A stretch of DNA of 64,000 bases from Norana najaformis (taxonomy: Eukaryota > Annelida > Clitellata > Crassiclitellata > Hormogastridae): NCBI GenBank assembly GCA_964023275.1, contig OZ029915.1, forward strand, positions 33,645,989 through 33,709,988, given 5' to 3'. The notes under the pieces were generated by a model. It made no database searches, was not told the origin of the DNA, and worked only from the letters and a program-made list of their open reading frames with translations. Made by a program: the position numbers and the translations under genes. How positions within the stretch are numbered: the stretch's first letter is position 1; each line of letters opens with the position of its first letter. This document shows positions 4,798 through 55,238 of this stretch, in pieces.

Positions 4798-4800
4798 TAA
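4798..4800. repeat. target-site duplication, left (TAA)
   Basis: TAA immediately precedes CACTGG and is repeated directly after CCAGTG at 7425-7427. Confidence 0.75.
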
Positions 4801-4812
4801 CACTGGCCAACA
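4801..4812 (+). repeat. left terminal inverted repeat
   Basis: CACTGGCCAACA, the exact inverted copy of 7413-7424. The similarity stops after 12 bases on the inner side. Confidence 0.9.
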
Positions 4813-4905
4813 GAAAATTTTTTTTTATTGTTGCCTTCGGATTTAGACCTGTTCTTGGGGTAATTTTGGGCGCTGATTCAGAAAATGTCATTGGATTGAG
4901 TGCAT

Positions 4906-4926
4906 CAGGTCTAGTTTCTGAGATAT
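4906..4926 (+). repeat. left subterminal inverted repeat
   Basis: CAGGTCTAGTTT followed by two variable bases and GAGATAT. It is the inverted counterpart of 7308-7328 with two mismatches in 21. Sitting about 105 bp from the end, it is a likely transposase-binding or end-pairing site. Confidence 0.8.
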
Positions 4927-5026
4927 CGTCGATTTTGTAAAGAAAACCCAGTCCACTCTTTAAACGATGTCTTTGGCAAAACTAAAATGTCATAATAAGC
5001 TTTATTTATGGCTAATTATAATTCTT

Positions 5027-5103
5027 GCTGATTCATATAATGCCTACATCCTTATAATGTAAAATCAGCATATCTTGCCGCGTACTGAGATATTGCTGAT
5101 TCA
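5027..5103 (+). promoter_or_regulatory. repeated GCTGATT motifs in the transposon 5' region
   Basis: GCTGATTCA occurs at 4872-4880, 5027-5035 and 5095-5103. The reverse form AATCAGC is at 5063-5069, and GAATCAGC is at 7355-7362 near the other end. Clustering of one motif at both ends suggests protein-binding sites; this is inference. Confidence 0.45.
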
Positions 5104-5240
5104 ACGAAATAACTATTCCGTAGCCTACAGCTTACTCAGCACTAAATTCATGGCCTCATTTAGAATTTATTTGTGCTTATACAGCGTTTCATGGTTTCGA
5201 ACTATGTAAATAGATTATGCTGAAGTCAGCATTTATAGCC

Positions 5241-5247
5241 TATATAA
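5241..5247 (+). promoter_or_regulatory. TATA box of the transposase gene
   Basis: TATATAA lies 158 bp before the transposase ATG. A GCAGTCG sequence about 30 bp downstream (near 5274) could be the initiator. Confidence 0.5.
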
Positions 5248-5324
5248 ACCGCTTCCTGAAAGCTAGAGCAGCCGCAGTCGTCTTAGGGCATATTAAGAGT
5301 TGGTCGCAAGAACAATCTGTGAAT

Positions 5325-5384
5325 GTGAGCATTAAATAACTACATGTTCTTACTATTTTTTAGGTTAGTCATTTAATTCCTCAG
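5325..5384 (+). other. candidate 60-bp intron in the transposase 5' UTR
   Basis: A GTGAGC donor at 5325 and a pyrimidine-rich TTAATTCCTCAG acceptor ending at 5384 frame a 60-bp interval. Removing it does not touch the main reading frame. An ATG at 5385 is followed at once by TGA, so it is not the start. Confidence 0.35.
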
Positions 5385-5404
5385 ATGTGAACATCCTTAA
5401 GGTT

Positions 5405-7108
5405 ATGGCTACTTCCAGACGGAGCTGCATTAACCATCCAGACATATTCTGCTACATTTGTGGGGAATACACACTAAAAGCAAACAGGAAACCGATTTCT
5501 GAGTTTGTAAAAAGAGCATATGTAGGTTATTTTGGTGTCAGACTTGGAGATCAAGATAAGCAATGGGCTCCTCATACAGTATGCAAAACTTGTATTGAAC
5601 AATTGCGCCACTGGACAATTGGAAAGAGAAGCTGCCTGAAATTTGGTGTACCGATGGTTTGGAGGGAACAGATAAACCACTTCGACGACTGTTACTTTTG
5701 TATGGTTAATATCATAGGCATTAATCGAAATAATCGTCACAAGTTGTCTTACCCTGATATACCTTCAGCCAGGAGACCTGTTCCGCATTCGGATATTGTA
5801 CCAGTTCCACCTTTTCGCGAACTACCTCAGCTCTCAGACGATGACACTTGCATGTCCAATATCGGACAAGATGACGAAAGTGAAGAAAGTGGGGGCAGTG
5901 ACAGTGATTTCCAATCAACTTCACACAGTGAACGTTTTGACCAAAAAGAGTTGAGTGATCTGATCAGGGACTTAAATCTTTCCAAAGAGTCCTCTGAATT
6001 GCTTGCGTCCAGACTAAAGGAAAAGAATGCACTTCAGCCTGGAACGAAAATTACAATTTATAGAAACAGAGAAAAGGATTTGCTGCCATTCTTTACCGAA
6101 GACAACAACCTAGTATTCTGTAATGACATCAGCAACTTATTGAAGAAAATTGGTCTGTCGGATTACAGCCCAGATGAGTGGCGTCTTTTTATCGACAGTT
6201 CAAAACGTAGTCTGAAATGTGTGCTTTTAAATAACGGCAACAAATTTGGTTCTATTCCAATCGGTCACTCCACCAGGATGAAAGAAGAGTACAATGCCAT
6301 CTCTTTAGTACTGGAAAAGATAAAATACAAAGAACATCAATGGGTAATTTGTGTAGACTTGAAGATGGTAAATTTCCTCCTTGGTCAACAAAGTGGCTAC
6401 ACAAAGTATCCCTGCTTTTTGTGTCTTTGGGACAGTAGAGCCAAGCATGAACATTGGACAAGAAAAGATTGGCCTTCGAGGAAAGACATGGTGGTTGGAG
6501 CTCAAAATGTAATCAAGGAATCTTTGGTGGCACGAGATAGGATCATACTGCCACCACTACATATAAAGCTAGGCATGATGAAACAATTTGTCAGGGCTTT
6601 GAATAAAGAAGGTTCATGCTTCGAATACATAGTACACAAGTTACCAGGAATTACAATGGAAAAATTGAAGGCTGGAATCTTCGATGGTCCACAGATCAGG
6701 CAACTTATGAATGACCCACTTTTCATACCATCAATGAATGAAATCGAATCTTGTGCCTGGTCTTCCTTTGTTCTTGTAAGTAAAAATTTTCTTGGCAACA
6801 AGAAGGCAGACAATTATGCACAACTAGTAGAGGATATGCTTCTTCATTTCAACAAGCTTGGCTGCAACATGAGCATTAAAGTCCATTATCTCCACAGTCA
6901 CTTAGATCGCTTTCCAGAGAATCTTGGTGACTTCAGCGAAGAGCAAGGTGAAAGATTTCACCAAGACATCAAAACAATGGAAAATCGATATCAAGGAAGA
7001 TGGGATGCACACATGATGGCAGACTATTGCTGGAATATTATGCGCGATTGTTCCGGCAGATGCCACACTCGGAAATCGTACAAAAGGAGCTTCTTCGGTG
7101 TCGAATGA
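5405..7108 (+). CDS. intact DDE-type transposase, 567 residues
   Basis: This is the only long intact gene in the window. I start it at ATG 5405, which has G at -3 and +4; the frame is open from about 5369 but has no earlier ATG. The N-terminus has a ZAD-like zinc module (Cys16-x2-Cys19 and Cys60-x2-Cys63) and a further Cys96-x2-Cys99 pair. An acidic linker (about 143-168) follows. The catalytic half looks like an RNase H-fold transposase: Asp264, Asp318 in VDLKMVNFLLG, then a Cys337-x2-Cys340 with His348/His350 insertion, and Glu512/513/516 in SEEQGERFHQD as candidate third acidic residue. The D...CxxC spacing recalls CACTA/Chapaev, Transib and RAG1-type enzymes. I recall near relatives as multicopy uncharacterised proteins in arthropods and cnidarians. 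No stop or frameshift is present. It should cut and paste the surrounding element by binding its ends in the nucleus. Confidence 0.88.
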   Translation: MATSRRSCINHPDIFCYICGEYTLKANRKPISEFVKRAYVGYFGVRLGDQDKQWAPHTVCKTCIEQLRHWTIGKRSCLKFGVPMVWREQINHFDDCYFCMVNIIGINRNNRHKLSYPDIPSARRPVPHSDIVPVPPFRELPQLSDDDTCMSNIGQDDESEESGGSDSDFQSTSHSERFDQKELSDLIRDLNLSKESSELLASRLKEKNALQPGTKITIYRNREKDLLPFFTEDNNLVFCNDISNLLKKIGLSDYSPDEWRLFIDSSKRSLKCVLLNNGNKFGSIPIGHSTRMKEEYNAISLVLEKIKYKEHQWVICVDLKMVNFLLGQQSGYTKYPCFLCLWDSRAKHEHWTRKDWPSRKDMVVGAQNVIKESLVARDRIILPPLHIKLGMMKQFVRALNKEGSCFEYIVHKLPGITMEKLKAGIFDGPQIRQLMNDPLFIPSMNEIESCAWSSFVLVSKNFLGNKKADNYAQLVEDMLLHFNKLGCNMSIKVHYLHSHLDRFPENLGDFSEEQGERFHQDIKTMENRYQGRWDAHMMADYCWNIMRDCSGRCHTRKSYKRSFFGVE

Positions 7109-7220
7109 CTTGAAATTTTTATAACAAACTTGTTCTGTTTGGTATCATATAAGTACAGTTTCAGGTACTACCATTTTCTTTTAAGTATTTGTATTATTAT
7201 GTTTATTTAGTGTATCACAT

Positions 7221-7226
7221 AATAAA
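7221..7226 (+). promoter_or_regulatory. polyadenylation signal of the transposase gene
   Basis: AATAAA lies 113 bp after the stop codon in an AT-rich 3' UTR, inside the element. Confidence 0.6.
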
Positions 7227-7307
7227 TTGAGCACTACATAATTATAGCTATAGCCTTATGTTTTATGGGCGAGCAGAGGCAAGGACTGGTATATGGCATA
7301 ATGTTCT

Positions 7308-7328
7308 ATATCTCGAAAACTAGACCTG
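7308..7328 (-). repeat. right subterminal inverted repeat
   Basis: The inverted partner of 4906-4926, ending 96 bp from the right end of the transposon. Confidence 0.8.
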
Positions 7329-7412
7329 CTGGGAGAAAACTGGTGCCTTTTCTGGAATCAGCAGGTCAAATATACCCAGAAACAGTTCTAACATTTGAGA
7401 CAACAAATTATG

Positions 7413-7424
7413 TGTTGGCCAGTG
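7413..7424 (-). repeat. right terminal inverted repeat
   Basis: TGTTGGCCAGTG, the exact inverse of 4801-4812. Confidence 0.9.
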
Positions 7425-7427
7425 TAA
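7425..7427. repeat. target-site duplication, right (TAA)
   Basis: TAA directly after the right inverted repeat, matching 4798-4800. Confidence 0.75.
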
Positions 7428-8230: not shown

Positions 8231-8565
8231 GCTGCTCCACCTCTCTGGATTAAACTCCCACCAGAATTACAACAATTATCTGACCCATCATACGAACTCA
8301 CCAACACGTCACCCCTTGCAATCTCTGTGGCAGTCTTTCACTCATAACTGAAAACACTCCTCTTCCACAAACCCCATCCTGATTCTTCCTCTCCATATCT
8401 CTCTTTCCGCTCCAATTCCGAGCATCATCCACCACAGCTGACTGTCTGACTCTTGGATCTTGATATGATCTTGCCTATCAATTTTGTTTTGATTGAGCGC
8501 CTGTGAATAAACTGGCTCCCGTGACTTGGCTTTCGTTGGGCGCTATAGAAATCTAAAGTTTGCGA
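8231..8565 (+). pseudogene. LINE ORF2 C-terminus and 3' UTR
   Basis: From 8231 the plus strand encodes APPLWIKLPPEL, then YELTN...F-H-S, a stop, and LKTLLFHK. This is the standard C-terminal signature of L2/CR1/Jockey-type ORF2. It continues into a 3' UTR shared with five other copies here: a GAGCGCCTGTGAATAA..CTGG block, then GTTGGGCGCTATAGAAATCT, then a degenerate GATTACG-type tail. 5'-truncated and stop-broken. Confidence 0.7.
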
Positions 8566-11483: not shown

Positions 11484-12117
11484 AATGCAGTAGTATAGCA
11501 TAACTGTGAAGCTGAGAATAATTTAAAAAAAGACTTTTGAGATCCTATCTATTATCTACTAACAGCTAAAATTTTCTGTTTACGGTCTAACTCCAGTATC
11601 AGCATCTGATTTTGATTTTCTACATCAACCATTTATCATTCATTGTTTGAATCTTGTGCGCACCGTCCGTCATTTGACATTGTAAAGCTCCCTTGAAGTA
11701 GCTTGCTCCTGGCGATGCTGCATAAATTGTCGTGATTAATATTACAATTACAGTAACAGCTGTGTAGCAATTATAAAAAAGCCCAAGTCCATAATATGTT
11801 CCCTCTAACCAACAGGATTTCCACTAAAAAACAAGCAGGCCAAGGCTTGGCTCTGCTTATGCGCCGATAACAGTTGCAGTGAACTTTAAGTGACGTTAAG
11901 CAATGCCGAGCCAGGTTAGTACTTAGAAGGTAATCGTCCATGGCATATCAGGCCATCTAATACTTACTCATGCTCGAATGATGAGCGTGAATTTGCGATG
12001 GTTTAGCCACGTAGAAAAATAATTTTAAAGAATCACAAGAGATTTTGCGATTTCAGGAGATACATCTGAAGAAAAATCAGAGAGATCTAAACGAATATAC
12101 AAATGCACACGAGCAGT
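11484..12117. other. unassigned AT-rich stretch
   Basis: No gene or repeat family recognised. Confidence 0.4.
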
Positions 12118-12119
12118 CC

Positions 12120-12150
<31 letters not shown>

Positions 12151-12718
12151 AAGAAGAAGAAGAAGAAGACGACGATGATGATGATGACGATGAAGAAGAT
12201 GATGATGAAAGAACCAGAACAGGAAGAACAAGAGCAAGAGTAAGAACAAGAAAAAGAAGTGAAAGAAGAAAGTGACGATGAAGAAAACGAAAAGGAAGAA
12301 GTAGAAGAAGAAAAAGAAAAAGAACTGGCACAAGGAGAACAAGACGAACAAGAATAAAAGCAAGAACAGGAGCAAGAACAAGTACAAGAAGAACAAAAAT
12401 AATCAAAAGTGGAAGAAGAGGAGCATGAATAAGAAGAAGAATTAGAATAAGAAGAAGAAGATGATGATGAAGATGAAGAAGAAAAAGAAGAACAAGAAGA
12501 ACAAAAATGAACAAAAATGAACAAAAATGAACAAGAACAAGAAGAACAAGATTAACAAGAAAAATAACTAGAAAAAGAACAAGAAGAACAAGAACAAGGA
12601 CAACAAGAAGAACAAGAAAAACAAGAAGTAGAAGGAGAACAAGAAGAACAAGAAGAACAAGAAAAACAAGAAGAATGAGAAGAATAAGAACAAGAACAAG
12701 AAGAACAAGAAGAGATCA
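12118..12718. repeat. 600-bp polypurine tract, (GAA)n and (AACAAGAAG)n
   Basis: Almost pure A/G on the plus strand with sparse C and T. It opens with about 16 GAA units (12120-12168) and later becomes GAACAAGAA-type repeats. Several long minus-strand frames of Ser/Phe/Leu arise here only from the repeat. Its length and strand asymmetry make triplex (H-DNA) formation plausible. Confidence 0.9.
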
Positions 12719-24080: not shown

Positions 24081-24539
24081 CACTGCATTTGACAAATTAC
24101 CGAAAAGAATGGAGATCATTTATTCGCACCCATCGCCTTAAAACGGCTGATGATGACGACGACGACGATGATTAACTAAGTTGCTTTGCAAGACTGGAGA
24201 TAACTAAAGTAACTAACGCAACATAATTGCAACCGTCATAAATAGATACCAAGCAATTTATCAAAATATGAACACAGCAAAACCTACTAAAGAGGCAGTC
24301 AACGTTCTCGAGCAGACCCGCTATTGAGCTTGACTTTACCTGCCTTTCGATTTTGTAATTGTAATTGTAATAGTAATCACGACAATTTATGCAGCAGCGT
24401 CAGGAGCAAGCAACTTCAAAGGTGCTTTACAATGTCAAATGACGGTGCGCACAAGATTCCAACAATAACTGATAAATGGTTGATGTACAAAAAACAAAAT
24501 CAGATGCTGATACTAGAGTTAGACAGTAAACAGAAAATT
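24081..24539. other. unassigned stretch with retroposon tail
   Basis: A (GTAATT)n tail at about 24354-24378 follows TGCCTTTCGATTTT, echoing the LINE 3'-UTR family. The 77-codon frame at 24324-24557 is not convincing. Confidence 0.4.
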
Positions 24540-24850
24540 TTAGTTGTTAATAGATAATAGATTGGATCTCAAAAGTCTCTTTAAAACAAAAACATTTTCG
24601 GCTTCTTGGATGGCTACAGGAAGACTGTTCCAGGCATGCGGACGGGCGACTCTAAAGGCACGATCACCAATTCTAGGCTTAGTTGCCGGTATGTATACCT
24701 GAGAATGACCTTGATGATCGGATCTGGAATAGGGTAGGATCGTCAGACAGCAACTTGGTGCTGTCGGTAAGATAGCTTGATGCACGACTGTGAAGGCATT
24801 TGTACATAAGAAGACAAAGTTTATATCTGACACGTTCGCCGATCTTCAAC
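24540..24850 (-). pseudogene. LINE ORF2 C-terminal fragment
   Basis: The clearest LINE C-terminus in the window. The minus strand reads GDRAFRVARPHAWNSLPVAI followed by a short linker and FVLKRLLRSNLL. Upstream, in a neighbouring frame, LCLLMYKCLHSRASSYLTD corresponds to the preceding conserved block, so one frameshift separates the two parts. Confidence 0.8.
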
Positions 24851-24904: not shown

Positions 24905-25020
24905 TTAATGACTGCCTGTAACCGAATTTTGTTTTGACTGAGCGCCTGTGCATATGCTGGTTTACGCTACTTTGCTTTCCTTGGGCGCCGTAGAAACTAG
25001 AAATCTCGAGGTTACGTTTG
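24905..25020 (+). mobile_element. LINE 3'-UTR fragment
   Basis: TTTTGTTTTGACTGAGCGCC, then TGTGCATATGCTGG and TTGGGCGCCGTAGAAAC, the same tail as 8231-8565. It lies just downstream of the opposite-strand LINE fragment. Confidence 0.65.
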
Positions 25021-25283: not shown

Positions 25284-25475
25284 CGCTTATATCTCATTCC
25301 GCCCCAATCCCAGACATCACCCACTGTAGCTGCCACGCTGTCTCTCTGCCTAACTTTTGGATCTTGACCTGGAACCGAACCCTTTTTGCCTATCGATTTT
25401 GTTTTGACTGTGTGCCTGCGAATGAGCTGGTTTCCGTGACGTGGCTTTTGTTGGGCGCTGTAGAAATCTCGGGAT
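25284..25475 (+). mobile_element. LINE 3'-UTR fragment
   Basis: The best-preserved copy of this 3' UTR: TATCGATTTTGTTTTGACTG, GAATGAGCTGGTTTCCGTGA, GTTGGGCGCTGTAGAAATCT, GGGATTACAAT. Confidence 0.75.
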
Positions 25476-25939
25476 TACAATATCATCAACATCATCTTCA
25501 TCATCGCCGTCGTCATCATCATCATTATCACCTGTTTATCATAATTCACAAGGCTGATAATCATTAGTCTTGATCGCTTTCTCCCTCCGCTTACCTCTGC
25601 CGCTGTCACCAGCCTCCCTCCCCTCACTCGACTAACTGCAGCCTCCGTACCTTCGTGTTTCAGACAGGTCCCCTCCCCGATCAGATCAATATCGCCTTCT
25701 ACCTGTGTCCGTGCATGCGTCAGAAGTCAGACAACAGGCAGACACACCACCCCAGCGGCTGCTGCAAACGAGAACCCCCTCCTCCTCCTCCTCCTCCATC
25801 TCCTCATCTTTCTCCTATTGCTGGTTCTTCTTCCTCCTTCTGCCCAGTCCTCCTTATCCTGCTTCTACTCTCCCTCTCTCTCTCCATCATCTGCTCCAAC
25901 TGAACCTTCATGCTGCTTTCTCCTCAGCAGCCCATCGCG
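25476..25939. other. CT-rich stretch
   Basis: CCTCCT and ATCATC simple sequence; frames across 25655-25903 are compositional. Confidence 0.45.
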
Positions 25940-33818: not shown

Positions 33819-34184
33819 GTCGATTTACCAATGCTATTTTGGAGGTTTAAAAAGGTGTTCTATTATTGGATTAATTACAGTCGTCACGTTTGCGCTTCAG
33901 TCTAGAGATACTTCAGACTACGCTGCTGGAGAGTCTGTTGGGGCTTTTAATCATGTGCCTTTTAGCTTCACCAAATTAAGCGCAATATAGTGACTGTTTC
34001 CTGATCCGTGTTTTCCAATATGGTATGTTCAGCTTAATGAAATAAGCCACAAGTTGCTTCGATAATTATGGTAGTATGGGTTGATTATTTGCCAAAAATA
34101 AAACAGTTCCGAGTGCCATATTGACTACTAAAGTGACACAGGAACAGGTTTTGACATGTCTGTCAGCAGTCCGATCCGAACACT

Positions 34185-34300
34185 TTAGCCTATCGATTTT
34201 ATTTTGACTGAGCACACCTGTTAATAAGCTGGTCTCCGTGACGTGGCTTTTGTTGGGGGCTGTAGATATCTCGGGATTACGAATACGATTACGATAGCCG
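34185..34300 (+). mobile_element. LINE 3'-UTR fragment (copy A)
   Basis: TATCGATTTTATTTTGACTG, AATAAGCTGGTCTCCGTGAC, GTTGGGGGCTGTAGATATCT and a GATTACGAATACGATTACGA tail. Same family as 25284-25475. Copy A has GAGCACACCTG where copy B has GAGCACCTG. Confidence 0.75.
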
Positions 34301-35493
34301 CCATTTTGCTTTTGGTGGTCATTTGGTTTAAAACAAGACACAAGTTACACGTTGCTCTTTATTGTTGTTTCTATAAGTTAGACACCCAGAAACTTTTTCA
34401 AGTTTCGCATGGCCGCCATTGTGTGTTGTTAGGGATTTGGAACATAAAGCTCCGAAAATGACCGTGGAAAACAAATTATTCGCAATCAACACAATGAAGT
34501 CACTCAGAAAAAAATTGTTTATTTGTTTTCCTTAAAATGCTTCTTCACTTTTAAAACCGCATGCTTTCTAATTTATCCTAGTCTTATCAAATGAATGACT
34601 TGACAGTGATGTGGGAAACCACGAAGGGATTTAATTAGTCCATGCTCATACCCACAAATAATTTAAATATTTTTGGGCATTGACCTGATTGCCACTCGAT
34701 GGTGCGCCATCGGTTCATGCCTTGTGCAGTAGACACCGGCGCGATAGAAGTTATTAATATACAAATTATGATAATAATATTTATAAGCGAAGGAGTTTAT
34801 TGCCTCAGCTAGAGCGTTTCGAATGTAGTTTTGCTTGGTAGGACATATTTGACAAACGTCAATGATAGCTTTTTCATGTAAAGTTGTTTGATATATTTTC
34901 TGTCAGCATGAATTCTCTGATTCAGGAAACCAAAGACCCAACTTCAGTGAGTCCTCAAGACTCCTCCGTGGGCCATTCATGTTGTTGTCCCCACAGTTAT
35001 GATAGCATTCATTTAAGTATGCACAGAATAAGTGGAAATGGAAGGTTTTATATGCCAAATGTAAAATTTGGACTGGTGCTTATATTTTATGGTGGTGGTT
35101 GTGGGAGCTCGTGGTCGTTGTGCTTGCGGTGGTAGCCGTGGTGTGCTGGTGTGTATTTGTCATGGTGGTGATAATGACGGTACTGATGAATGAAAGGGCT
35201 GATGATTCGTGTGCATGGTATAGGACAGATGAGGCATTGCTCTCGTGTACGGATCTGGACATTTGTATAGCGCCTTTTAGGAACCTCTTTAAGGCGTGGA
35301 ATGCTTCAAATCTGGTGGAGGAACCAAGAACTAGCATGTATTTATGTCGGATCGACATCGTATTCAAACATATGTGAATATACGTTTGCCATAGAACTAT
35401 TGTATGGCTTTATGTATTTTTGCATTCGCCATATATGCCGGCCTTACGTAGGTTTATGTATACAAGCCGCGTATACTTACTGCATATCTACGA

Positions 35494-35519
35494 ATATATA
35501 TATATATATATATATATAT
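35494..35519. repeat. (TA)n microsatellite (copy A)
   Basis: About 12 TA units; the homologous tract in copy B is 46261-46286. Confidence 0.9.
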
Positions 35520-37930
35520 GTCTCTGCTCGTTGAACACATTATGAAGTTGATGGCCATCCTTTGTGTCTGTCGACGCATATAAAGCCGCAATAGTCAGAC
35601 GAGGAACATATATCGACAGGGCAAATTAGGATGGAACAGCGTATGATGGCCAAAATGGCCCTGTGCAACAGTCGCCTTTTATTCTTATCCACAATGTATG
35701 GTTTCAAGAATGAAAAATAAACTGCGTCTGTGTGCTGCCCTTGCAGGCTTCCGTAATAACTCGAACTACCTGTGCTTTGGCATGCATTGTTCTGATTCCG
35801 CCCTTTCCTTTAGTAACTGGCCTAACAAGAAATGGAGCACGAACAAGAAAAAGTTTTCGATGATTTAACCTTGCAGACAGCTTAGATCAGTTATCAATCA
35901 ACACAGGCTTTCTACAGATTTGCGTCGCCATGACTTTTATTACGCGTGTTCAAAAAGTAAGCGTCTTTGACGCTTTGGAATGGATAGCAATATTCTTATG
36001 AAAATCTGAACAACGAATTGTGAAATACGCAAGTATTTTGACGAGAAGGCGCTACATAATCCGGTACGAAATTGATCGATGGTTGCATGTATAAAATACA
36101 CATGCAGATGCAAATCCGAGACAGAACAATTCCCTTCTTGCTGATATTATCCGGCGTGCTTCCATAACAACCAATTAAATGAAAAGTATGCATTCTGTGA
36201 TTTCAGATTCTAACGAATAGACACCTTTTTACTAATTAATTCACACCATGTGGACAGTAATTTAAAGCTGCTAACGACCATTTCATTTCTGTGGCGGAAT
36301 TTATAACCTAAGTGTGATATTGCTATATATAGTTCTTCACATAGTATTTACTATTAACTATAGTACTACATTTATTGGTATTAATATTACAAAAGTGTCA
36401 TTCCTGATATACCATTACTATGTGCGTTTAACTGCGCGATTTACGATTATTATTGAATCATTTGTAATTCACGTGGTCATTTTAAAATTCTCTTTAGTTA
36501 AATGTACACTCGCATGTCAATTAAATAGCAGTGGTAGTACTTATAACACTTTTATGAACATGCTGTACAACATCAAACCTGTTCCTGACTGTTCAGTAGT
36601 AGTAGTAGTAGCAGCAACTGCTAAAACTGTATTACAATGACAATAGTAGGCTTAGTTTGGAAAGAGCAGTTCTTGGTGTCTATGTAAATATCTTTGCTGT
36701 CACTTAAACGTTCAAGAAAAGCAATTTAGAAAAATTCTGAAACATTATGTATGCGAAAGAAGTAGCCATCTCTTGCAATTATTGATGGCGATGTTGTTGT
36801 TGTTGTTGTTTGTGTTATTTCTGTTGTTTATGACTCACGTTTGTGTATTGTATTGCAGGCAGAATTTGAGACTGCCCCTCTTGTGTAGTTGCGTTGAACA
36901 GTTTAAGGGATCAGCTATTTTCTCACCAATTATATATCTGCTTGAATGGAATTCCTTCAAAATTGAGCGTCCAAACAGGGGATCTTTCGTGCCTCGGTGA
37001 CTTTTGAAATAAACTGCGTACTTCTTGACCACCGAAAATTTATCCTAAGCTGCTTCGAAGGAACTTTCACTGTATGACCAAAGCTAAAAGGGATCATTCC
37101 GACTGATTTATCGGTTACGCTGTGACTCAAATCTGCCTCAAAGTCCCAAGTTCTCCGGAGAATTTTGCAGATGTTCTTTATAAAGGGATTATTCATAGTT
37201 GATGAAACGGTCGTTAAGAAGGGATCCTTCACATTCTGATTAAACGGCCCTGGCAGAAGTTTTTATCGGCTTGGATGAGAGACTGGGAAACAGGCAAGGG
37301 TGGAACGACTTTCATGTCGCTCTGAATTCGTGTGCAAACTAATAAACGGCTTATAAAATCATTTGCCACTGACAGACCGCGGTGCAAAAAGCTAAATAAC
37401 AAGGGCAGCTAAACTGACAGACATAGCCGCTCGTGCTGGAAAAGACGGATAGGGAGAAAGATGCAGAAAACTACACAGATGGACAAAAGGACACGAAGTA
37501 AACGTGAGATATTAGGAGAGTGAAGGAGCAGGATATGTCCGTACAAATATCAAGTCCATCAGAGTAGGAATGAAACTGGGTGGACGTTGAGCGAACTTGA
37601 AATCAAAAAGATTGTCATGTTTGTAGTCGTTATCATCAACAACGACGACGTTAATGACTACGGTATTATCATCAGGCTGCAAGTTCAGCATGTCTTCGGC
37701 GAAGCACAGGCGTCGTTGCCTTGACAACGAAGCATCACAAGGAATCTCATCGATTGATCGACAGGCGGACAAACGCAGATGAAGACAAATGCACGCAGAC
37801 GGACAGACACATACAGACAGACTGTACATTAAGTACGGGTCGTAAAGAGAGAGGGGTGGCGGTGAGACGCAGGCTACAGCCATAATAGGAAGCAGTGGCA
37901 ATTGATGGCAACATAAACCAGGGAAACGTC

Positions 37931-37978
37931 GACAGACAGACAGACAGACAGACAGACAGGCAGACAGACAGACAGACG
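37931..37978. repeat. (CAGA)n microsatellite (copy A)
   Basis: Differs from copy B (about 48690-48740), which has an ATCAGACAGAG interruption: a length polymorphism between the blocks. Confidence 0.9.
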
Positions 37979-38563
37979 CTAACTACCACGACTGATAGGC
38001 AGGCATTTATAGATGAACTGAGAGGCATAGACAAATAAATAGACAGAGTCGGAAAGAAGAACACATATAAAATATGTCGGCAGAGCGATACAGACATACA
38101 CAATGACAGATAGACAGACACATTGGCTGTGATAGACGGACGAAAGCAGTGAGACGGGTGAGACAAACTGTGCGACCATTCTCCAACAGTGGACACAGAA
38201 AATCAACCGGTCATCGCAAAAACTCCGCGTCTCTCTGCTTGTCCGTCTCCATTTCCATGTCACCGTCTCCCTATGAATCCCTGCATCTGCCTGTGCACCT
38301 AATTCTTACGGTCATCGCCTGTGAAGGCAGAGATGCATCTCTGTTGAGCAGGGAGGGACGCAGGTGAGGCTGAAACGAGATTAAAGAGGATTACCTCGTA
38401 TCGAACGCTGATCCTTCGTCGACTGACGAACTTGATCGAAACGTCGTCTTCGTCTGTTTCCGGTTTAAGAGGAATGATGGAGCGACGGCCGAAAAATCTT
38501 TTGCCCGATAAAGGAGCCCTTCGAAAGACTGGAACAGCCCACCTGGCACCTGTCCTCCACACA

Positions 38564-39078
38564 ATGGCCTTGACCTACCTTGTCCTACTGACAGGTTAGT
38601 CAAACTTCGTTTCTAACAGAACAAGCACTAATCCAACTGTTATTACTAGCAATATTGATAGTAACTGAAATAGTATTATAACTAACAACAACAGTAACGA
38701 TAATAACGCAGATGATTATGCAGTTTATGGGAGAATGATGATTATGATGGCGGTGATGATAGGGGTGGTGGTGATGATGATAGTCATGATGATGATGGTG
38801 ATGATGATGATGACTGAGATTCGTTTATTACACATCATGCTCAACAGCATCACCAGTTGAGTTATCTATCTCAAATCGTGCATCTATCCTTGCGTGCTAC
38901 TCCACTTCGTTATCACCCACCTCATCATCATTCTCATCTTCGTCGTCGTCATCATCATTGTCATTAATCGTTCGTCGTTTTTCAAATATTCGCAGTCTTC
39001 GCCACGATGTTCATGTTTTCTACGTCCTCAGCGGAAGTTCAGTTTACAAAGGAAGGATTTCATCTGTCGATCCCTTGA
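38564..39078 (+). CDS. candidate two-exon secreted peptide, 37 residues (copy A)
   Basis: Exon 1 (38564-38594) starts in good context (CACACAATGG), encodes MALTYLVLLT and ends at ACAG/GTTAGT, a good donor. Exon 2 would start at 38996 after AAATATTCGCAG. In the resulting phase it continues VFATMFMFSTSSA, then about a dozen polar residues, and stops at TGA 39076-39078. Together the two exons give a textbook signal peptide with a predicted cut after SSA. The roughly 400-bp intron holds a (GATGAT)n tract. The splice join is my inference; neither exon is identified by homology, and exon 2 might instead splice onward. The structure is unchanged in copy B, which is not independent evidence. Confidence 0.25.
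38729..38816. repeat. (GATGAT)n imperfect microsatellite (copy A)
   Basis: ATGATG/GTGATG units within the candidate intron; the homologue in copy B is about 49490-49573. Confidence 0.85.
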
Positions 39079-40481
39079 TGTGTGTCTCCTCTTGTCTTTC
39101 CGCCTGCGTCTGTCCGGCAGTGTGAATGTTTGCATTCGTTTTTATATCAGTGCCCAACCAACATCCATTTTATTCCCATGACCAACTCTGACTCGTCGTT
39201 TGCTCTTTTTGCTTTGCTAGGCAAGGTTCAAGTCTGTTTGTGGAACCGGAACACAGATTTTGTATTGGGAGGGGAGAGGGAGGTAAACAAAGGAACAATC
39301 CAAAAAAGAAGAAGGGAAATGAAGAAAAGGAAGAAGTGAATCACAGAAGGGCGAGTGAATGAAGAGATATGCGAGCAGCTGAATAGTAAAAGAAGAAACA
39401 AACACCGTAGGTAAATGGATAGAAGGGATGGATGGATGAATGGATGGTGGAAGGAAGGACGGACGGACGGACGGATGGAACTGATAGGTAAGAGAAGAGA
39501 AGAACAGTGAAGGAGAAGAAGGCAGTGAAACAGACAGAAGTGATGAGACAAAGAGACGAACGGGTGTTGGAACCGAAGACACATAAGAAAGCATTTCATT
39601 GTCTTCGACGATTCGCCTTCGATTACGAACCACATCTTATCGCATATGCACCAACACCCACACATATGCACAAGCACACAGACACAGACTGACGCACACA
39701 GACACAGGCAAACACGCACAAAAACTCGACGCAAATACAGACACACACAGTCACGCGGAAACAATAAAGCAAATTGCGGCATAATGACGTCATAAATTCT
39801 TGGTACGACGAGGCGTTCGACGTGCCATATGGGCTTCGTCTCAGCCACGGAAACAGTGCATCTTAGCACTGACTTCCTATTTTCTCGGCACTTGGCACTT
39901 GTTTCGGCACTTGGAACAGCGCTCATTGGACCACGTCGAATGGCGCATTTGTCGATTACAGACAGAGAGACAGACATACAGACATATAAGCAGACCTAAG
40001 GATAGTAGCACACGCAGATACAGAAAGACATGGAGCGTAGCTTTGCAATTTGCGAAATCGTTAAATCTTCCTGTCATTATTATTATCCAAATATTTATTG
40101 GTTTACGCCAAATCGGGCGACTTGGCTGGCTAAGCATCGCTTCGAAATCTTGGAAAGCCAGACTCAGGGTCATTTCCACGAACGAAGCAATAGTATCAAG
40201 GCCATCACAGTCTTCAGTTCTCCTACAAAACCTTTCTTACTGTAAACGCTCAATACACGATCGCTTCTCCATCCTGCACACTCACCAGAAATTACAGATA
40301 TAGCTTTAAACCTTATACATACAGATATAGATATAAACCTTTTCCCTCACCCGCCTGACATATTTCCCTCATCTGAGACCTGGCAGTAGACACAACAGGC
40401 CAGATAAAGTAGTAAGTAATTCAACAATTAACACCATTCTATTTATCTACAATCCTCGTGATACGATCCAAAAACGCCTAG
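39079..40481. other. simple-sequence-rich part of copy A
   Basis: Purine-rich at about 39270-39560 with GGAC and GGAT tetramer runs, then CACA-rich at 39655-39760. Long minus-strand frames (39217-39977) are Ser/Leu/Phe translations of this composition. Confidence 0.5.
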
Positions 40482-41165
40482 ACGAGCCTTATTGACTGTC
40501 ATCGAGTAGCATTGTTGAATGTAATGAACTTCTATTCGCTGAAGGTTACAGCAGTAGTTTATTAGATCATAGCCAGAATTTATCAGACGCCAATTCCTAA
40601 ATAAATGTGTTAATGTATTATCAGTAATGTGTAAATGACTGCATAGTGCCACTCTTGGTTAGTTAATTTGCAGTATTCAGTCGTTTTTTTTTTGGAAGAA
40701 CTTTATATTGCTACTGACTCGCTTTGGGCAGGGCTGAGGCGAAATTTGTGGGCTTTAACCCCTTAACCCTATAGCTGGCGCTACCTCTGGTTTCAGCGAA
40801 GCGCTTTTACAATATGCATGTGTGTGTGTGTGTGTGTGCATTTAATGTGTGTATTTAATAGTGCCTTTTAAGTACGTTACAACAGTACTGCACACATGAT
40901 CACATGTTATGGCAATGACCCTCCTCTAAGGATCGCAGTCCTGTTTGTAGAGCCTTGGAGGCGTAAGAACCAAATCTTCCAAGCCAGGGCGGGGATTCGA
41001 ACCTTGAATGATGGAAACTGTGGGTCTTGACCTAAAACCGGTTTCCCCATAATACACAGGTTGTCTAAATTATGGACACGAACCAATAGAGAACTATTGT
41101 AACCTTCAGTGAGTAGAAGTTCATTACATTCAACACTGTTAGTCAAGAAGAGCCAATAAGGCTCG
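40482..41165. repeat. inverted-repeat-flanked element (copy A)
   Basis: GTTGAATGTAATGAACTTCT plus a further 17 bases of near-identity (40514-40550) is inverted at 41098-41134. An outer ACGAGCCTTATTG block is also inverted (40482-40494 and 41153-41165). About 550 bp lies between, including (TG)n and a GGTTCGAATCCCCGCC block on the minus strand. It may be a foldback element or two opposed copies of one short repeat. No target duplication found. Confidence 0.5.
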
Positions 41166-43384
41166 TTCATGTGTTATTCTGATCGTGTCACCAGAACTGT
41201 AGCTTCTAGGCCATCCCCTAGACGAGGATCATGTGCCAGAACATATGATCAGTTAGATAGTCAATGGTGCAGGGCTTTTGTAAGGTGCTTAAAAGGTTCT
41301 ATGCTTAACCTAGACTGCGCAGTAAAGAAGGGGCTTTGGAGAGGGAAGTCTCATTGGTACAGTTCTATCAGATGGCGACCGGCTTCAAAAGAGCCTTTGA
41401 GAGATGAAAGTTGCCTCTTCTCTTAAGCAGACTTCCAGGGGTTCGTTTGTGGCGCCGTAGCAGGATCTTCTTTGTCTCCTTCGCTTTCTCTTTCCTCCTC
41501 TCCATATGTCATTTGTACTCAGTGATATTCCTGCACTTGTAGACGCCTTTAGGTAGTCTTCTAAGCTAGACTGGCGCTCCATAAGTTAATTTTTAAAAAT
41601 TTGCCATAAGAGTCACCATTAGCTGAGCCAAATACTGGCTTGAAACAGAATCAGTAGCTGTGCTAGAGTCATTCTTGCCTTTACTGTCTATTTTAATACT
41701 AATTTAAAGCTTAACGGAATACAGTTGTGTAATCTAAACCACACAAATACTTTCATTATTAGAATGTTGGCTATAAGTTATCTCTTTTTCGCACTAAAGC
41801 CGAATAACCCTATCGACCTATCGAAGTCGCTATTTAGTTTAAACTAAATTTCTAACTTGTACTCTTCAACACAGAAATTTCTATTCATAAGAACAAGAGT
41901 AATTCTAGGTATGGTAAGGTAATGTAAGGTAAAATAAGGCGAAAAAGGACAAGGCGAAGAGAGGTAATCAATCACTTCATCGCTAACGTGCCTCTATCAT
42001 TTATCGCCCGAGAGACGTAACTCAGGAGCTCGATGACACTTAGACTGAAGCGCAAACATGACCAAAGCAATCCAGCAACTGGACAACCTTGCATTGATTG
42101 TTATCCGGTTATAAGTTGCTCGATGACGACGTGTCGTCAGATGACCAGCGTTCGAGTGAATCAGGTGAGAAGGTGAATCAGATTCCGACAAACAGTTAAC
42201 TCCGGTCACAGAGATGACAGACAGACAGACAGACAATCAGGACCAACATGCGACGCGAGCGGAAACAGCGTAGTTATCACTTAATTCCTGTCGTACTTGT
42301 TCCTTTTTCCTCAGGAGTTTTCTGTTGTTGGTTGATTCTAATCCAGGAGGAAATTCAGCGGTTTTTTGCGGGGACTGACTCATTCGGCCACAGAGGACGC
42401 TTAAGTCAGAAACTTCTCTGTAACCGGGCCTCAGCAGCAGCAGCAGCGGATCAAATCCGCTGAGAAATTAGACGCGCAAATGTCCAGATATATAGGCCTA
42501 CGAGACCCACTGCATGTGGCTGAGGGTGAGTGACGACGGCCAGACAGACAGCGCATACAGGCACACACAGGCAAACAGACACACAGACAGACGGTTCTTT
42601 GGCTTCCATGGTTACGGCCGAGCACCTACCTATCCGGTGTACGCCCGAGGCAATTGAAGTGATTGAATGGACACTGGACGCCATTGTCTGCCTTCACCAC
42701 CTTCTCCTCCAAGTATTACTCCTCCTTCCATTGCGTTCCCTTTTCCTCCTCTTCCTCTTGCAAAGCACGAAGAACAATTTCCCATCCGCGCAATGACTGC
42801 GTTCCGCAACAACCGCACCTAGTCCGGTTAGGGTCTGGGAAAGTAAGTCGGGGCAAAGGTCCCGTTTAAGGTCAGAGTTGGAATTAGGCTCTAATTCGGG
42901 TTACTGATCGAAGAAGTCTGTGTTAAAGATTCAGATTTGAAAAAGACGTCAAACGTTTTCTTACCACACCTGATGCGATTGACTCGTTATACAACCAACC
43001 ATCTGACGGATTTGTTGAACGCGTGACTCCGTGTCTCATCCAGGCAACGAGTCACATAAACAACTACGCTGTATGATAATGAATGAGACAACGACTACGA
43101 CGACTACAGATACGATAACTATGACATCAGTCGGGAAGCCATAAAGTATATGCAAAACGAATCTGCGAGTCAGGGTTGCTGCCCCGTTTTAAAATACTTA
43201 AAAGCGCCAAATGTTTTGGCTTATAGTAATCGTAATTTCCCGATTTCGTTAGAGATCTCGTATTCAAACCATCAACCGCTAAGAATAGATTATCTGGCTG
43301 TTGTAAATCTATTAACAACAAAGTCTTATTTCGAAATTACCAAAATCCTATCGTTTCGACTATGATAGCAACAGCGGTTTATTT

Positions 43385-43416
<32 letters not shown>

Positions 43417-44454
43417 TTTTGTTTGTTTATTTATTTATTATATAACGGATTCATATCATGACTCGATCGTTCAGTTGATTCTCATTTTAAAAATCCTGCT
43501 GATTATGCCGTTGCTATCCTTCAAAGCACTTGTCATTAGCGCCGATTTCTAGGGATTAATTTTTTTTGCTGTCCACGTGCTGGTTCTGCGAGGCGCTACA
43601 ACAGTTTTAATTACATTTGATTGATGATTCTTGATCATTTCAGTCATTGGCGGCATCCCGGTCACCTTTGAAGCGGTAATTAACTCGGTCAGTCGTCAAC
43701 TGGAAAGAGATTGCATTTCCTAAGGACCTGCAAAACGCTCGTTAGTCCGAGCGAAATTAGTTTAGAGCCGCAGTTAAGTTCACTGCTCAACGTGTGGCTT
43801 ACCTCATCTTATATTGCATTTCCTCGTCTAGCAGGCCTTGTGTTACGATGCTCATTTTTCGGCATTGTCTTAATTGTCTTGTGTGATTTTACCTTGCCAG
43901 TCTTATCTGATAGTAGTTATCTGGCCTTGTCTAGCTGTTTCACGTGTTTTGTGAGCTCTTTTCTTCATTGCTCTATTCGTCTTGTGTGATCTTTTCTTGC
44001 CAGCTTTATCTTGTAGCGTTTGTCTTGCAAATCCTTGTCTTACTTTTTATTTTATTTTTTTGCATTGCGTTAAATGTCTTTTCTTGTCTTTCTTGGCATC
44101 ATCTCGACTTTCCATATCTTTTTGGCTTTTGATGGCTTCTTACGCAGCCGTCTTTCTTTTCATGATCTTGTCTAACCTTGCGCTCTATGACTGTGCGTTG
44201 TATATTGTATTGTCTTGTCTCAGTTTGTCTTGCCTTGCTTCGGATTTCTTAACACATCCCTCTGGAACTTACCTTGTTTCAAATCGCTTCATCACCAAAT
44301 GCCACTTCTGACCAGTCGATGGTGATCGTCAGTGTAGGAGCCGGCTTAAATTCGGAGGCTACTTTTTAACAATAAGCATCGCTGTCTCATACAGAACCAG
44401 AATAATACAAACAAATTAACGACCTCCATATATAGGCTTCTTTTTAAAACTATC
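41166..44454. other. non-coding part of copy A
   Basis: Contains (CAGA)n at 42213-42236, CpG-richer DNA around 42370-42640, (TTTA)n at 43381-43440 and a TTGTCTTG-rich tract at 43850-44240. No recognisable gene. Confidence 0.45.
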
Positions 44455-44574
44455 GGTGAGCGATAGTATAATGGTTAGCGTGCTGGATTGTCAATCGAGA
44501 AGGTCGGTGGTTTAAATCCCCGCCAGGGCAGAAATTTGTTTCAAGATTTCGGCTCCACTTGCTCCACTCAGATA
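44455..44574 (+). mobile_element. tRNA-derived SINE family 1, truncated by the gap
   Basis: The head and first part of the body are identical in layout to 55239-55506. The sequence stops at CTCAGATA and runs into Ns, so the truncation is an assembly edge rather than biology. Confidence 0.8.
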
Positions 44575-44584
44575 NNNNNNNNNN
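44575..44584. other. assembly gap (10 N)
   Basis: Ten ambiguous bases between the two duplicate blocks. A fixed small number of Ns usually marks a contig join of unknown or negative size. Confidence 0.98.
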
Positions 44585-44947
44585 GTCGATTTACCAATGC
44601 TATTTTGGAGGTTTAAAAAGGTGTTCTATTATTGGATTAATTACAGTCGTCACGTTTGCGCTTCAGTCTAGAGATACTTCAGACTACGCTGCTGGAGAGT
44701 CTGTTGGGGCTTTTAATCATGTGCCTTTTAGCTTCACCAAATTAAGCGCAATATAGTGACTGTTTCCTGATCCGTGTTTTCCAATATGGTATGTTCAGCT
44801 TAATGAAATAAGCCACAAGTTGCTTCGATAATTATGGTAGTATGGGTTGATTATTTGCCAAAAATAAAACAGTTCTGAGTGCCATATTGACTACTAAAGT
44901 GACACATGAACAGGTTTTGACATGTCTGTCAGCAGTCCGATCCGAAC

Positions 44948-45060
44948 ACTTTAGCCTATCGATTTTATTTTGACTGAGCACCTGTTAATAAGCTGGTCCC
45001 CGTGACGTGGCTTTTGTTGGGGGCTGTAGATATCTCGGGATTACGAATACGATTACGATA
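44948..45060 (+). mobile_element. LINE 3'-UTR fragment (copy B)
   Basis: Allelic or duplicate counterpart of 34185-34300. Confidence 0.75.
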
Positions 45061-48000
45061 GCCGCCATTTTGCTTTTGGTGTTCATTTGGTTTAAAACAA
45101 GACACAAGTTACACGTTGCTCTTTATTGTTGTTTCTATAAGTTAGACACCCAGAAACTTTTTCAAGTTTCGCATGGCCGCCATTGTGTGTTGTTAGGGAT
45201 TTGGAACATCAAGCTCCGAAAATGACCGTGGAAAACAAATTATTCGCAATCAACACAATGAAGTCACTCAGAAAAAAATTGTTTATTTGTTTTCCTTAAA
45301 ATGCTTCTTCACTTTTAAAACCGCATGCTTTCTAATTTATCCTAGTCTTATCAAATGAATGACTTGACAGTGATGTGGGAAACCACGAAGGGATTTAATT
45401 AGTCCATGCTCATACCCACAAATAATTTAAATATTTTTGGGCATTGACCTGATTGCCACTCGATGGTGCGCCATCGGTTCATGCCTTGTGCAGTAGACAC
45501 CGGCGCGATAGAAGTTATTAATATACAAATTATGATAATAATATTTATAAGCGAAGGAGTTTATTGCCTCAGCTAGAGCGTTTCGAATGTAGTTTTGGTT
45601 GGTATGACATATTTGACAAACGTGAATGATAGCTTTTTCATGTAAAGTTGTTTGATATATTTTCTGTCAGCATGAATTCTCTGATTCAGGAAACCAAAGA
45701 CCCAACTTCAGTGAGTCATCAAGACTCCTCCGTGGGCCATTCATGTTGTTGTCCCCACAGTTATGATAGCATTCATTTAAGTATGCACAGAATAAGTGGA
45801 AATGGAAGGTTTTATATGCCAAATGTAAAATTTGGACTGGTGCTTCTATTTTATGGTGGTGGTTGTGGGAGCTAGTGGTCGTTGTGCTTGCGGTGGTAGC
45901 CGTGGTGTGCTGGTGTGTATTTGTCATGGTGGTGATAATGACGGTACTGATGAATGAAAGGGCTGATGATTCGTGTGCATGGTAAAGGACAGATGAGGAG
46001 GCATTGCTCTCGTGTACGGATCTGGACATTTGTATAGCGCCTTTTAGGAACCTCTTTAAGGCGTGGGATGCTTCAAATCTGGTGGAGGAACCAAGAACTA
46101 GCATATATTTATGTCGGATCGACATCGTATTCAAACATATGTGAATATACGTTTGCCATAGAACTATTGTATGGCTTTATGTATTTTTGCATTCGCCATA
46201 TATGCCGACCTTACGTAGGTTTATGTATACAAGCCACGTATAGTTACTGCATATCTACGAATATATATATATATATATATATATATGTCTCTGCTCGTTG
46301 AACACATTATAAAGTTGATGGCCATCCTTTGTGTCTGTCGACGCATATAAAGCCGCAATAATCAGACGAGGAACATATATCGACAGGGCAAATTAGGATG
46401 GAACAGCGTATGATGGCCAAAATGGCCCTGTGCAACAGTCGCCTTTTATTCTTATCCACAATGTATGGTTTCAAGAATGAAAAATAAACTGCGTCTGTGT
46501 GCTGCCCTTGCAGGCTTCCGTAATAACTCGAACTACCTGTGCTTTGGCATGCATTGTTCTGATTCCGCCCTTTCCTTTAGTAACTGGCCTAACAAGAAAT
46601 GGAGCACGAACAAGAAAAAGTTTTCGATGATTTAACCTTGCAGACAGCTTAGATCAGTTATCAATCAACACAGGCTTTCTACAGATTTGCGTCGCCATGA
46701 CTTTTACTACGCGTGTTCAAAAAGTAAGCGTCTTTGACGCTTTGGAATGGATAGCAATATTCTTATGAAAATCTGAACAACGAATTGTGAAATACGCAAG
46801 TATTTTGACGAGAAGGCGCTACATAATCCGGTACGAAATTGATCGATGGTTGCATGTATAAAATACACATGCAGATGCAAATCCGAGACAGAACAATTCC
46901 CTTCTTGCTGATATTATCCGGCGTGCTTCCATAACAACCAATTAAATGAAAAGTATGCATTCTGTGATTTCAGATTCTAACGAATAGACACCTTTTTACT
47001 AATTAATTCACACCATGTGGACAGTAATTTAAAGCTGCTAACGACCATTTCATTTCTGTGGCGGAATTTATAACCTAAGTGTGATATTGCTATATATAGT
47101 TCTTCACATAGTATTTACTATTAACTATAGTACTACATTTATTGGTATTAATATTACAAAAGTGTCATTCCTGATATACCATTACTATGTGCGTTTAACT
47201 GCGCGATTTACGATTATTATTGAATCATTTGTAATTCACGTGGTCATTTTAAAATTCTCTTTAGTTAAATGTACACTCGCATGTCAATTAAATAGCAGTG
47301 GTAGTACTTATAACACTTTTATGAACATGCTGTACAACATCAAACCTGTTCCTGACTGTTCAGTAGTAGTAGTAGTAGCAGCAACTGCTAAAACTGTATT
47401 ACAATGACAATAGTAGGCTTAGTTTGGAAAGAGCAGTTCTTGGTGTCTATGTAAATATCTTTGCTGTCACTTAAACGTTCAAGAAAAGCAATTTAGAAAA
47501 ATTCTGAAACATTATGTATGCGAAAGAAGTAGCCATCTCTTGCAATTATTGATGGCGATCTTGTTGTTGTTTTTGTTATTTCTGTTGTTTATGACTCAGG
47601 TTTGTGTATTGTATTGCAGGCAGAATTTGAGACTGTCCCTCTTGTGTAGTTGCGTTGAACAGTTTAAGGGATCAGCTATTTTCTCACCAATTATATATCT
47701 GCTTGAATGGAATTCCTTCAAAATTGAGCGTCCAAACAGGGGATCTTTCGTGCCTCGGTGACTTTTGAAATAAACTGCGTACTTCTTGACCACCGAAAAT
47801 TTATCCTAAGCTGCTTCGAAGGAACTTTCACTGTATGACCAAACCTAAAAGGGATCATTCCGACTGATTTATCGGTTACGCTGTGACTCAAATCTGCCTC
47901 AAAGTCCCAAGTTCACCAAAGAATTTTGCAGATGTTCTTTATAAAGGGATTATTCATAGTTGATGAAACGATCGTTAAGAAGGGATCCTTCACATTCTGA

Positions 48001-49320
48001 TTAAACGGCCCTGGCAGAAGTTTGTATCGGCTTGGATGAGAGACTGGGAAACAGGCAAGGGTGGAACGACTTTCATGTCGCTCTGAATTCGTGTGCAAAC
48101 TAATAAACGGCTTATAAAATCATTTGCCACTGACAGACCGCGGTGCAAAAAGCTAAATAACAAGGGCAACTAAACTGACAGACATAGTCGCTCGTGCTGG
48201 AAAAGACAGATAGAGAGAAAGATGCAGAAAACTACACAGATGGACAAAAGGATACGAAGTAAACGTGAGATATTAGGAGAGTGAAGGAGCAGGATATGTC
48301 CGTACAAATATCAAGTCCATCAGAGTAGGAATGAAACTGGGTGGACGTTGAGCGAACTTGAAATCAAAAAGATTGTCATGTTTGTAGTCGTTATCATCAA
48401 CAACGACGACGTTAATGACTACGGTATTATCATCAGGCTGCAAGTTCAGCATGTCTTCGGCGAAGCACAGGCGTCGTTGCCTTGACAACGAAGCATCACA
48501 AGGAATCTCATCGATTGATCGACAGGCGGACAAACGCAGATGAAGACAAACGCACGCAGACGGACAGACACATACAGACAGACTGTACATTAAGTACGGG
48601 TCGTAAAGAGAGAGGGGTGGCGGTGAGACGCAGGCTACAGGCATAATAGGAAGCAGTGGCAATTGATGGCAACATAAACCAGGGAAACGTCGACAGACAG
48701 ACAGACAGACATCAGACAGAGACAGACAGACAGACAGACGCTAACTATCACGACTGATAGGCAGGTACTTATAGACGAACGGAGAGGCATAGACAAATAA
48801 ATAGACAGAGTCGGAAAGAAGGACGTATATAAAATATGTCTAGGCAGAGCGATACAGACATACACAATGACAGATAGACAGACACATTGGCTGTGATAGA
48901 CGGACGAAAGCAGTGAGACGGGTGAGACAAACTGCGCGACCATTCTCCAACAGTGGACACCAACCGGTCATCGCAAAAACTCCGCGTCTCTCTGCTTGTC
49001 CGTCTCCATTTCCATGTCACCGTCTCCCTATGGATCCCTGCATCTGCCTGTGCACCTATTTCTTACGGTCATCGCCTGTGAAGGCAGAGATGCATCTCTG
49101 TTGAGCAGGGAGGGACGCAGGTGAGGCTGAAACGAGATTAAAGAGGATTACCTCGTATCGAACGCTGATCCTTCGTCGACTGACGAACTTGATCGAAACG
49201 TCGTCTTCGTCTGTTTCCGGTTTAAGAGGAATGATGGAGCGACGGCCGAAAAATCTTTTGCCCGATAAAGGAGCCCTTCGAAAGACTGGAACAGCCCACC
49301 TGGCACCTGTCCTCCACACA
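45061..49320. other. non-coding part of copy B
   Basis: Same content as 34301-38563; no gene beyond what is listed there. Confidence 0.45.
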
Positions 49321-49836
49321 ATGGCCTTGACCTACCTTGTCCTACTGACAGGTTAGTCAAACTTCGTTTCTAACAGAACAAGCACTAATCCAACTGTTAT
49401 TACTAGCAATATTGATAGTAACTGAAATAGTATTATAACTAACAACAACAGTAACGATAATGACGCAGATGATTATGCAGTTGATGGGGAGAATGATGAT
49501 TATGATGGCGGTGATGATAGGGGTGGTGGTGATGATGATAGTCATGATGATGATGGTGATGATGATGATGACTGAGATTCGTTTATTACACATCATGCTC
49601 AACAGCATCACCAGTTGAGTTATCTATCTCAAATCGTGCATCTATCCTTGCGTGCTACTCCACTTCGTTATCACCCACCTCATCATCATTCTCATCTTCG
49701 TCGTCGTCATCATCATTTTCATTAATCGTTCGTCGTTTTTCAAATATTCGCAGTCTTCGCCACGATGTTCATGTTTTCTACGTCCTCAGCGGAAGTTCAG
49801 TTTACAAAGGAAGGATTTCATCTGTCGATCCCTTGA
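49321..49836 (+). CDS. candidate two-exon secreted peptide (copy B)
   Basis: Counterpart of 38564-39078. Exon 1 is 49321-49351 with donor GTTAGT, and exon 2 begins at 49754 and ends at TGA 49834-49836. Exon sequences match copy A exactly by eye, whereas the intron differs at a few bases. Same caveats apply. Confidence 0.25.
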
Positions 49837-54900: not shown

Positions 54901-55238
54901 TTTTGGCTTGTGATGGCTTCTTACGCAGCCGTCTTTCTTTTCCTGATCTTGTCTTGTCTACCCTTGCGATCTATGTCTGTGTGTTGTATATTGTATTGTC
55001 TTGTCTCAGTTTGTCTTGCCTTGCTTCGGATTTCTTAACACATCCCTCTGGAACTTACCTTGTTTCAAATCGCTTCATCACCAAATGCCACTTCTGACCA
55101 GTCGATGGTGATCGTCAGTGTAGAAACCGGCTTAAATTCGGAGGCTACTTTTTAACAATAAGCATCGCTGTATCATGCAGAACCAGAATAATACAAACAA
55201 ATTAACGACGTCCATATATAGGCTTCTTTTTAAACTAT
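51963..55238. other. non-coding part of copy B
   Basis: Counterpart of 41166-44454; (TTTA)n at about 54170-54225. Confidence 0.45.

What the first reader, a model, noticed from the sequence alone, without database searches (positions are those of the whole stretch)
4798..7427. Complete, apparently intact DNA transposon with CACTGG ends and TAA duplication
Seen directly: 12-bp perfect inverted ends, a 3-bp direct duplication, a second inverted pair about 100 bp inside each end, and one unbroken 567-codon transposase between them. Intact copies are uncommon, and this one may still be mobile. Known: CACTR ends with 2-4 bp duplications define the CACTA-Mirage-Chapaev group. Inference: this is a member or close relative, possibly an unnamed family.
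Basis: partly seen in the sequence, partly recalled or inferred. Interest (0 to 1): 0.85.

Follow-up and report, generated by a model that had tools for sequence, protein, structure and literature searches.

The report
Ordinary Chapaev3-type DNA transposon, apparently intact
This is a complete-looking cut-and-paste "jumping gene" that fits a kind (Chapaev3) already known from many animals; its single gene is unbroken, so it might still move, but nothing seen in its design is new.

Summary
A 2,624-bp element (4801-7424) has 12-bp perfect inverted ends (CACTGGCCAACA), TAA on both sides, and one unbroken 567-codon gene (5405-7108). One correction: the "second inverted pair" is part of one long imperfect inverted repeat; the ends align over 154 and 142 bp (score 44; best of 1,000 shuffles 22). 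The CAC/GTG ends, the 3-bp TWA duplication, the A and T outside it, and the order D264-D318-C(2)C-LH-H(4)H-E516 in the protein match published hallmarks of the Chapaev3 subgroup of the CACTA-Mirage-Chapaev (CMC) group. I file it as a probable new member of a known kind, moving by DDE cut-and-paste; the mechanism is inferred. Not testable: copy number, host, Repbase identity, mobility, tree position. The own-genome search did not complete (7 attempts), structure prediction was off, and no named relative was found in Pfam, PDB, PHROGs, phage, plasmid, prokaryotic or viral collections, which hold few animal transposons.

The parts
4798..4800 (.). TAA target-site duplication, left copy (preceded by A)
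4801..4954 (+). left imperfect terminal inverted repeat, 154 bp; outermost 12 bp perfect (CACTGGCCAACA)
4906..4917 (+). left arm of the inner perfect 12-bp block, inside the long inverted repeat
5241..5248 (+). TATA-box-like sequence TATATAAA, 164 bp upstream of the ATG (candidate promoter, inference)
5405..7108 (+). transposase gene, 567 aa, single unbroken frame; proposed catalytic residues D264, D318, E516 (E512/E513 not excluded); C337-x2-C340, L385-H386, H494-x4-H499
   Evidence: the choice of acids is inference from motif order
5450..5701 (+). N-terminal cysteine-rich stretch (CxxC at residues 16, 60, 96); weak resemblance to zf-AD and double zinc ribbon; candidate DNA-binding 'Chapa' zinc finger
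   Evidence: matches below Pfam cut-offs
7221..7226 (+). AATAAA polyadenylation-signal-like hexamer
7283..7424 (-). right imperfect terminal inverted repeat, 142 bp
7317..7328 (-). right arm of the inner perfect 12-bp block
7425..7427 (.). TAA target-site duplication, right copy (followed by T)

Best explanation
A structurally complete, probably autonomous Chapaev3-type DNA transposon. Its single-frame gene encodes a DDE transposase. The N-terminal cysteine-rich stretch probably binds the long terminal inverted repeats. The RNase H-like core (D264, D318, E516, with a C(2)C...H(4)H zinc site) probably cuts at the CAC/GTG ends and inserts the element at A-TWA-T targets with a 3-bp stagger, giving the TAA duplication. 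Shown: ends, duplication, long inverted repeats, open gene, motif order. Inferred: fold, catalysis, Transib/RAG-like chemistry, current activity.
For: Ends, TAA duplication and the A and T outside it match the Chapaev3 rule read in PMC4079192 (passages and section 14): CAC/GTG ends, TWA duplication, A on the 5' side and T on the 3' side. The protein has C(2)C, LH and H(4)H between the proposed second D and last E, the order given for C(2)C and H(3-4)H in PMC12730594 (passages). H-x4-H occurs once in the protein, at 494. Size fits: 567 aa and 2,624 bp against 556 aa and 2,289 bp for Garfield_BM; most Chapaev3 transposases appear single-exon. Long inverted repeats: 0 of 1,000 shuffles reach the score.
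Against: No named homologue could be aligned. Pfam gave only sub-threshold matches; neither DUF1280 (assigned to Chapaev in PMC3985635) nor RAG1 was listed (I did not check that both models are in the held library). PDB, PHROGs, prokaryotic contigs, IMG/VR, phages and plasmids gave nothing. CxxC occurs 4 times and LH 3 times in the protein, so short motifs alone are weak. No second copy in the window; the genome was not searched, and the duplication rests on one copy.
Confidence: 0.9

Rival explanations
1. A member of another CMC/Transib lineage (EnSpm/CACTA, Mirage, 4-bp Chapaev, Transib), working in the same cut-and-paste way.
For: EnSpm also has CAC..GTG ends with 3-bp duplications, and C(2)C and H(3-4)H are shared by EnSpm, Mirage, Chapaev, Transib and others.
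Against: TWA with A and T outside is described for Chapaev3, and a 567-aa single-frame gene in a 2.6-kb element fits Chapaev3. The 3-bp duplication speaks against 4-bp Chapaev and (lengths recalled) 2-bp Mirage and 5-bp Transib.
Confidence: 0.07
2. A Chapaev3 copy that is young but no longer able to move: the frame is open, yet a missense change, a worn end or silencing stops it. (A sub-case of the best explanation, not exclusive of it.)
For: Inside the outer 12 bp the two arms differ: 29 of the first 60 bases match without gaps, and 105 of 157 columns with gaps. No activity data exist.
Against: No stop or frameshift in 567 codons; proposed triad and zinc ligands are present. Divergent arms are common in long subterminal repeats (recalled).
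Confidence: 0.4
3. A domesticated host gene that happens to keep transposon ends.
For: Intact gene; no second copy in 64 kb.
Against: The outer ends and the target duplication are perfect, which an old domesticated gene would usually have lost (inference).
Confidence: 0.02

Closest known systems
Chapaev3 transposons (Merrow, Garfield, Conan; PMC4079192)
   Same: CAC/GTG ends, TWA 3-bp duplication between A and T, a transposase of similar size (556 aa in Garfield_BM) with C(2)C, LH, H(4)H; most Chapaev3 transposases appear single-exon
   Different: Sequence identity to any named family could not be measured; 2,624 bp against 2,289 bp for Garfield_BM, which has two exons
Rest of CMC: Chapaev with 4-bp duplication, Mirage, CACTA/EnSpm
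   Same: CAC..GTG-like ends, DDE with C(2)C and H(3-4)H
   Different: Length or sequence of the target duplication; often other protein sizes (recalled)
Transib transposase / RAG1
   Same: Share C(2)C and H(3-4)H between second D and last E (PMC12730594); PMC4411706 (figure legend) counts Chapaev and Chapaev3 as clades of a wide Transib superfamily
   Different: No RAG1 match listed by Pfam and no PDB chain matched; 5-bp duplications in Transib (recalled)

Membership tests
Chapaev3 (CMC group) | Inverted repeats beginning CAC and ending GTG | tested here: met
   CACTGGCCAACA / TGTTGGCCAGTG
Chapaev3 (CMC group) | 3-bp TWA target duplication | tested here: met
   TAA on both sides; one copy only
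Chapaev3 (CMC group) | A outside the 5' duplication, T outside the 3' one | tested here: met
   A-TAA-CACTGG...CCAGTG-TAA-T; rule from PMC4079192
Chapaev3 (CMC group) | Transposase motifs C(2)C, LH, H(4)H with DDE | tested here: met
   C337/C340, L385-H386, H494/H499 in order with D264, D318, E516; found by motif only, acids assigned by inference, no alignment to a named member
Chapaev3 (CMC group) | N-terminal Chapa zinc finger (PMC4411706) | tested here: inconclusive
   CxxC at 16, 60, 96; only sub-threshold zinc-finger matches
Chapaev3 (CMC group) | Transposase groups with Chapaev3 in a tree | not testable with these tools
   No named Chapaev3 protein was available; no homologue
Chapaev in the wide sense (DUF1280, PF06918) | Match to the Pfam model | tested here: inconclusive
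   Not listed up to E=1 or, core alone, E=10; presence of the model in the held library was not checked, and PMC3985635 links it to Chapaev, not to Chapaev3 by name
Any multi-copy transposon family | Other copies in the genome with the same ends | tested here: inconclusive
   None elsewhere in the 64-kb window; genome search unanswered (7 calls)

The most novel reading that the evidence does not exclude
A currently active, unnamed Chapaev3 family with long (about 150-bp) inverted repeats whose inner conserved block is a second transposase-binding site, perhaps recently acquired by horizontal transfer, and usable as a model for RAG-like transposition.
Probability: 0.1. Interest if true: 0.4.

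Novelty: new member of a known kind. Interest (0 to 1): 0.17.

Why it matters
Chapaev transposases share zinc and catalytic motifs with Transib and the RAG1 recombinase. In the titles listed by searches (15 of 22 listed; 10 of 38 listed) I saw none on an experimentally active Chapaev3 element, so an intact copy is a reasonable candidate for such a test. A Hydra paper reports cell-type-specific expression of CMC-Chapaev-3 elements (PMC12220107, passage). In itself this element is an ordinary genome resident.

Tried and rejected
Homologue searches. Prokaryotic genome contigs: 4 stretches matched a pattern, 0 of 4 confirmed. IMG/VR: 0 stretches. Both start from exact peptide patterns of one protein and find close relatives only. 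Phages, plasmids, PDB and PHROGs: 0 matches. Pfam: sub-threshold matches only. Motif-pattern scans gave 1 locus, 0 and 2; tblastn of the transposase against these 3 gave a best E of 0.20, so I take them as chance.

Other. No second copy in the window: tblastn best E 1.1, blastn best E 0.49 over 23 bp, and no second pair of ends. No Rfam match and no tRNA, so the host was not identified; an animal is likely from the element type and the simple repeats (inference). A 5' intron was considered by eye only, without a call: the acceptor-like run upstream of the ATG had no convincing donor, so a single-exon gene is preferred.

Papers. PMC4079192: passages, section 14, and part 3 of 6 of the whole text. 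Passages only: PMC4411706, PMC3985635, PMC10294476, PMC3630058, PMC13282606, PMC12730594, PMC12220107. All others only in search listings. Repbase reports and Yuan and Wessler 2011 were seen only as citations.

Full report
What is there. The window holds a 2,624-bp element at 4801-7424. Its outer 12 bases are perfectly inverted (CACTGGCCAACA), and TAA stands directly outside both ends. A single frame, 5405-7108, runs 567 codons from ATG to TGA without a stop, while the other two forward frames hold 37 and 33 stops. The chance of such an open frame at this composition is about 5e-18. A TATA-like box at 5241 and an AATAAA at 7221 flank the gene; their use is inferred.

The "second inverted pair" is a conserved block within one long imperfect inverted repeat. 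The first 154 and last 142 bases align with a score of 44, against a maximum of 22 in 1,000 first-order Markov shuffles and 28 in 1,000 block pairs from elsewhere in the window. The alignment has 105 identities, 34 mismatches and 18 gap columns in 157 columns. Without the outermost 30 and 20 bases it still scores 37, against a shuffle maximum of 17. The 12-bp perfect end taken alone is weak evidence: 136 of 2,000 shuffles have such a match somewhere between the 1-kb flanks, 3 of 2,000 with an identical 3-bp flank. The long alignment and the gene between the ends carry the case.

What it is. PMC4079192 gives these marks: CAC/GTG ends for Chapaev; for Chapaev3 a TWA duplication with A outside on the 5' side and T outside on the 3' side; and C(2)C, LH and H(4)H in the transposase. 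Here the insertion reads A-TAA-CACTGG...CCAGTG-TAA-T. The protein has C337-x2-C340, L385-H386 and H494-x4-H499. The last is the only H-x4-H in the protein; C-x2-C occurs four times and LH three times. These sit between a proposed second aspartate (D318) and last glutamate (E516), the order described for CMC, Transib and RAG1 in PMC12730594. The choice of acids is inferred from motif order and from recalled RAG1 spacing. The N-terminus has three more CxxC pairs and sub-threshold zinc-finger matches. This is in keeping with the Chapa zinc finger that PMC4411706 reports for Chapaev3 but does not prove it.

What could not be shown. No homologue came from PDB, PHROGs, prokaryotic contigs, IMG/VR, phages or plasmids, and Pfam gave only sub-threshold matches. 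These collections are poor in animal transposons, so this says little either way. DUF1280, which PMC3985635 links to Chapaev, was not among the Pfam matches; I did not check that the model is in the held library. The host genome could not be searched, so copy number, age and whether the family is named stay open. No structure could be predicted.

How it most likely works. Inferred: the transposase binds the long inverted repeats, brings the ends together, cuts at CAC/GTG in a DDE reaction related to that of Transib and RAG1, and inserts at ATWAT with a 3-bp stagger that repair turns into the TAA duplication. That this copy arrived by such a route is well supported by its anatomy; that it can still move is only possible.

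Verdict. A probable new member of a known kind, ordinary in design, worth naming only after a Repbase comparison. Chapaev3 families are already reported from many animals, with horizontal transfer (PMC4079192), and as CMC-Chapaev-3 in 8 papers of the library (listing only, one passage read).

Noticed in passing
33819-44574 and 44585-55358: A direct duplication of about 10.8 kb at 97.8% identity whose two copies abut a 10-N gap at 44575-44584. This looks like two haplotypes joined by the assembler rather than a real tandem duplication (inference).
   Followed up: partly
8469-8563, 24914-25008, 25384-25478, 34186-34280, 44950-45044: Five copies of a dispersed 95-bp repeat; the other four are 63-87% identical to the reference copy at 25384. 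Possibly part of a SINE (inference). The last two lie in the two halves of the 10.8-kb duplication.
   Followed up: no
61113-61703 (- strand): Open frame with a weak reverse transcriptase match (RVT_1, E 0.00066, 19.9 bits, below the Pfam cut-off of 29.6), probably a decayed LINE fragment.
   Followed up: no
11527-11758 and 24354-24582: Two pairs of inverted arms, 92% and 91% complementary and in matching order: an inverted pair of dispersed repeats.
   Followed up: no
12121-12713: A 593-bp purine-rich AAGAAG-type tandem array on the + strand.
   Followed up: no
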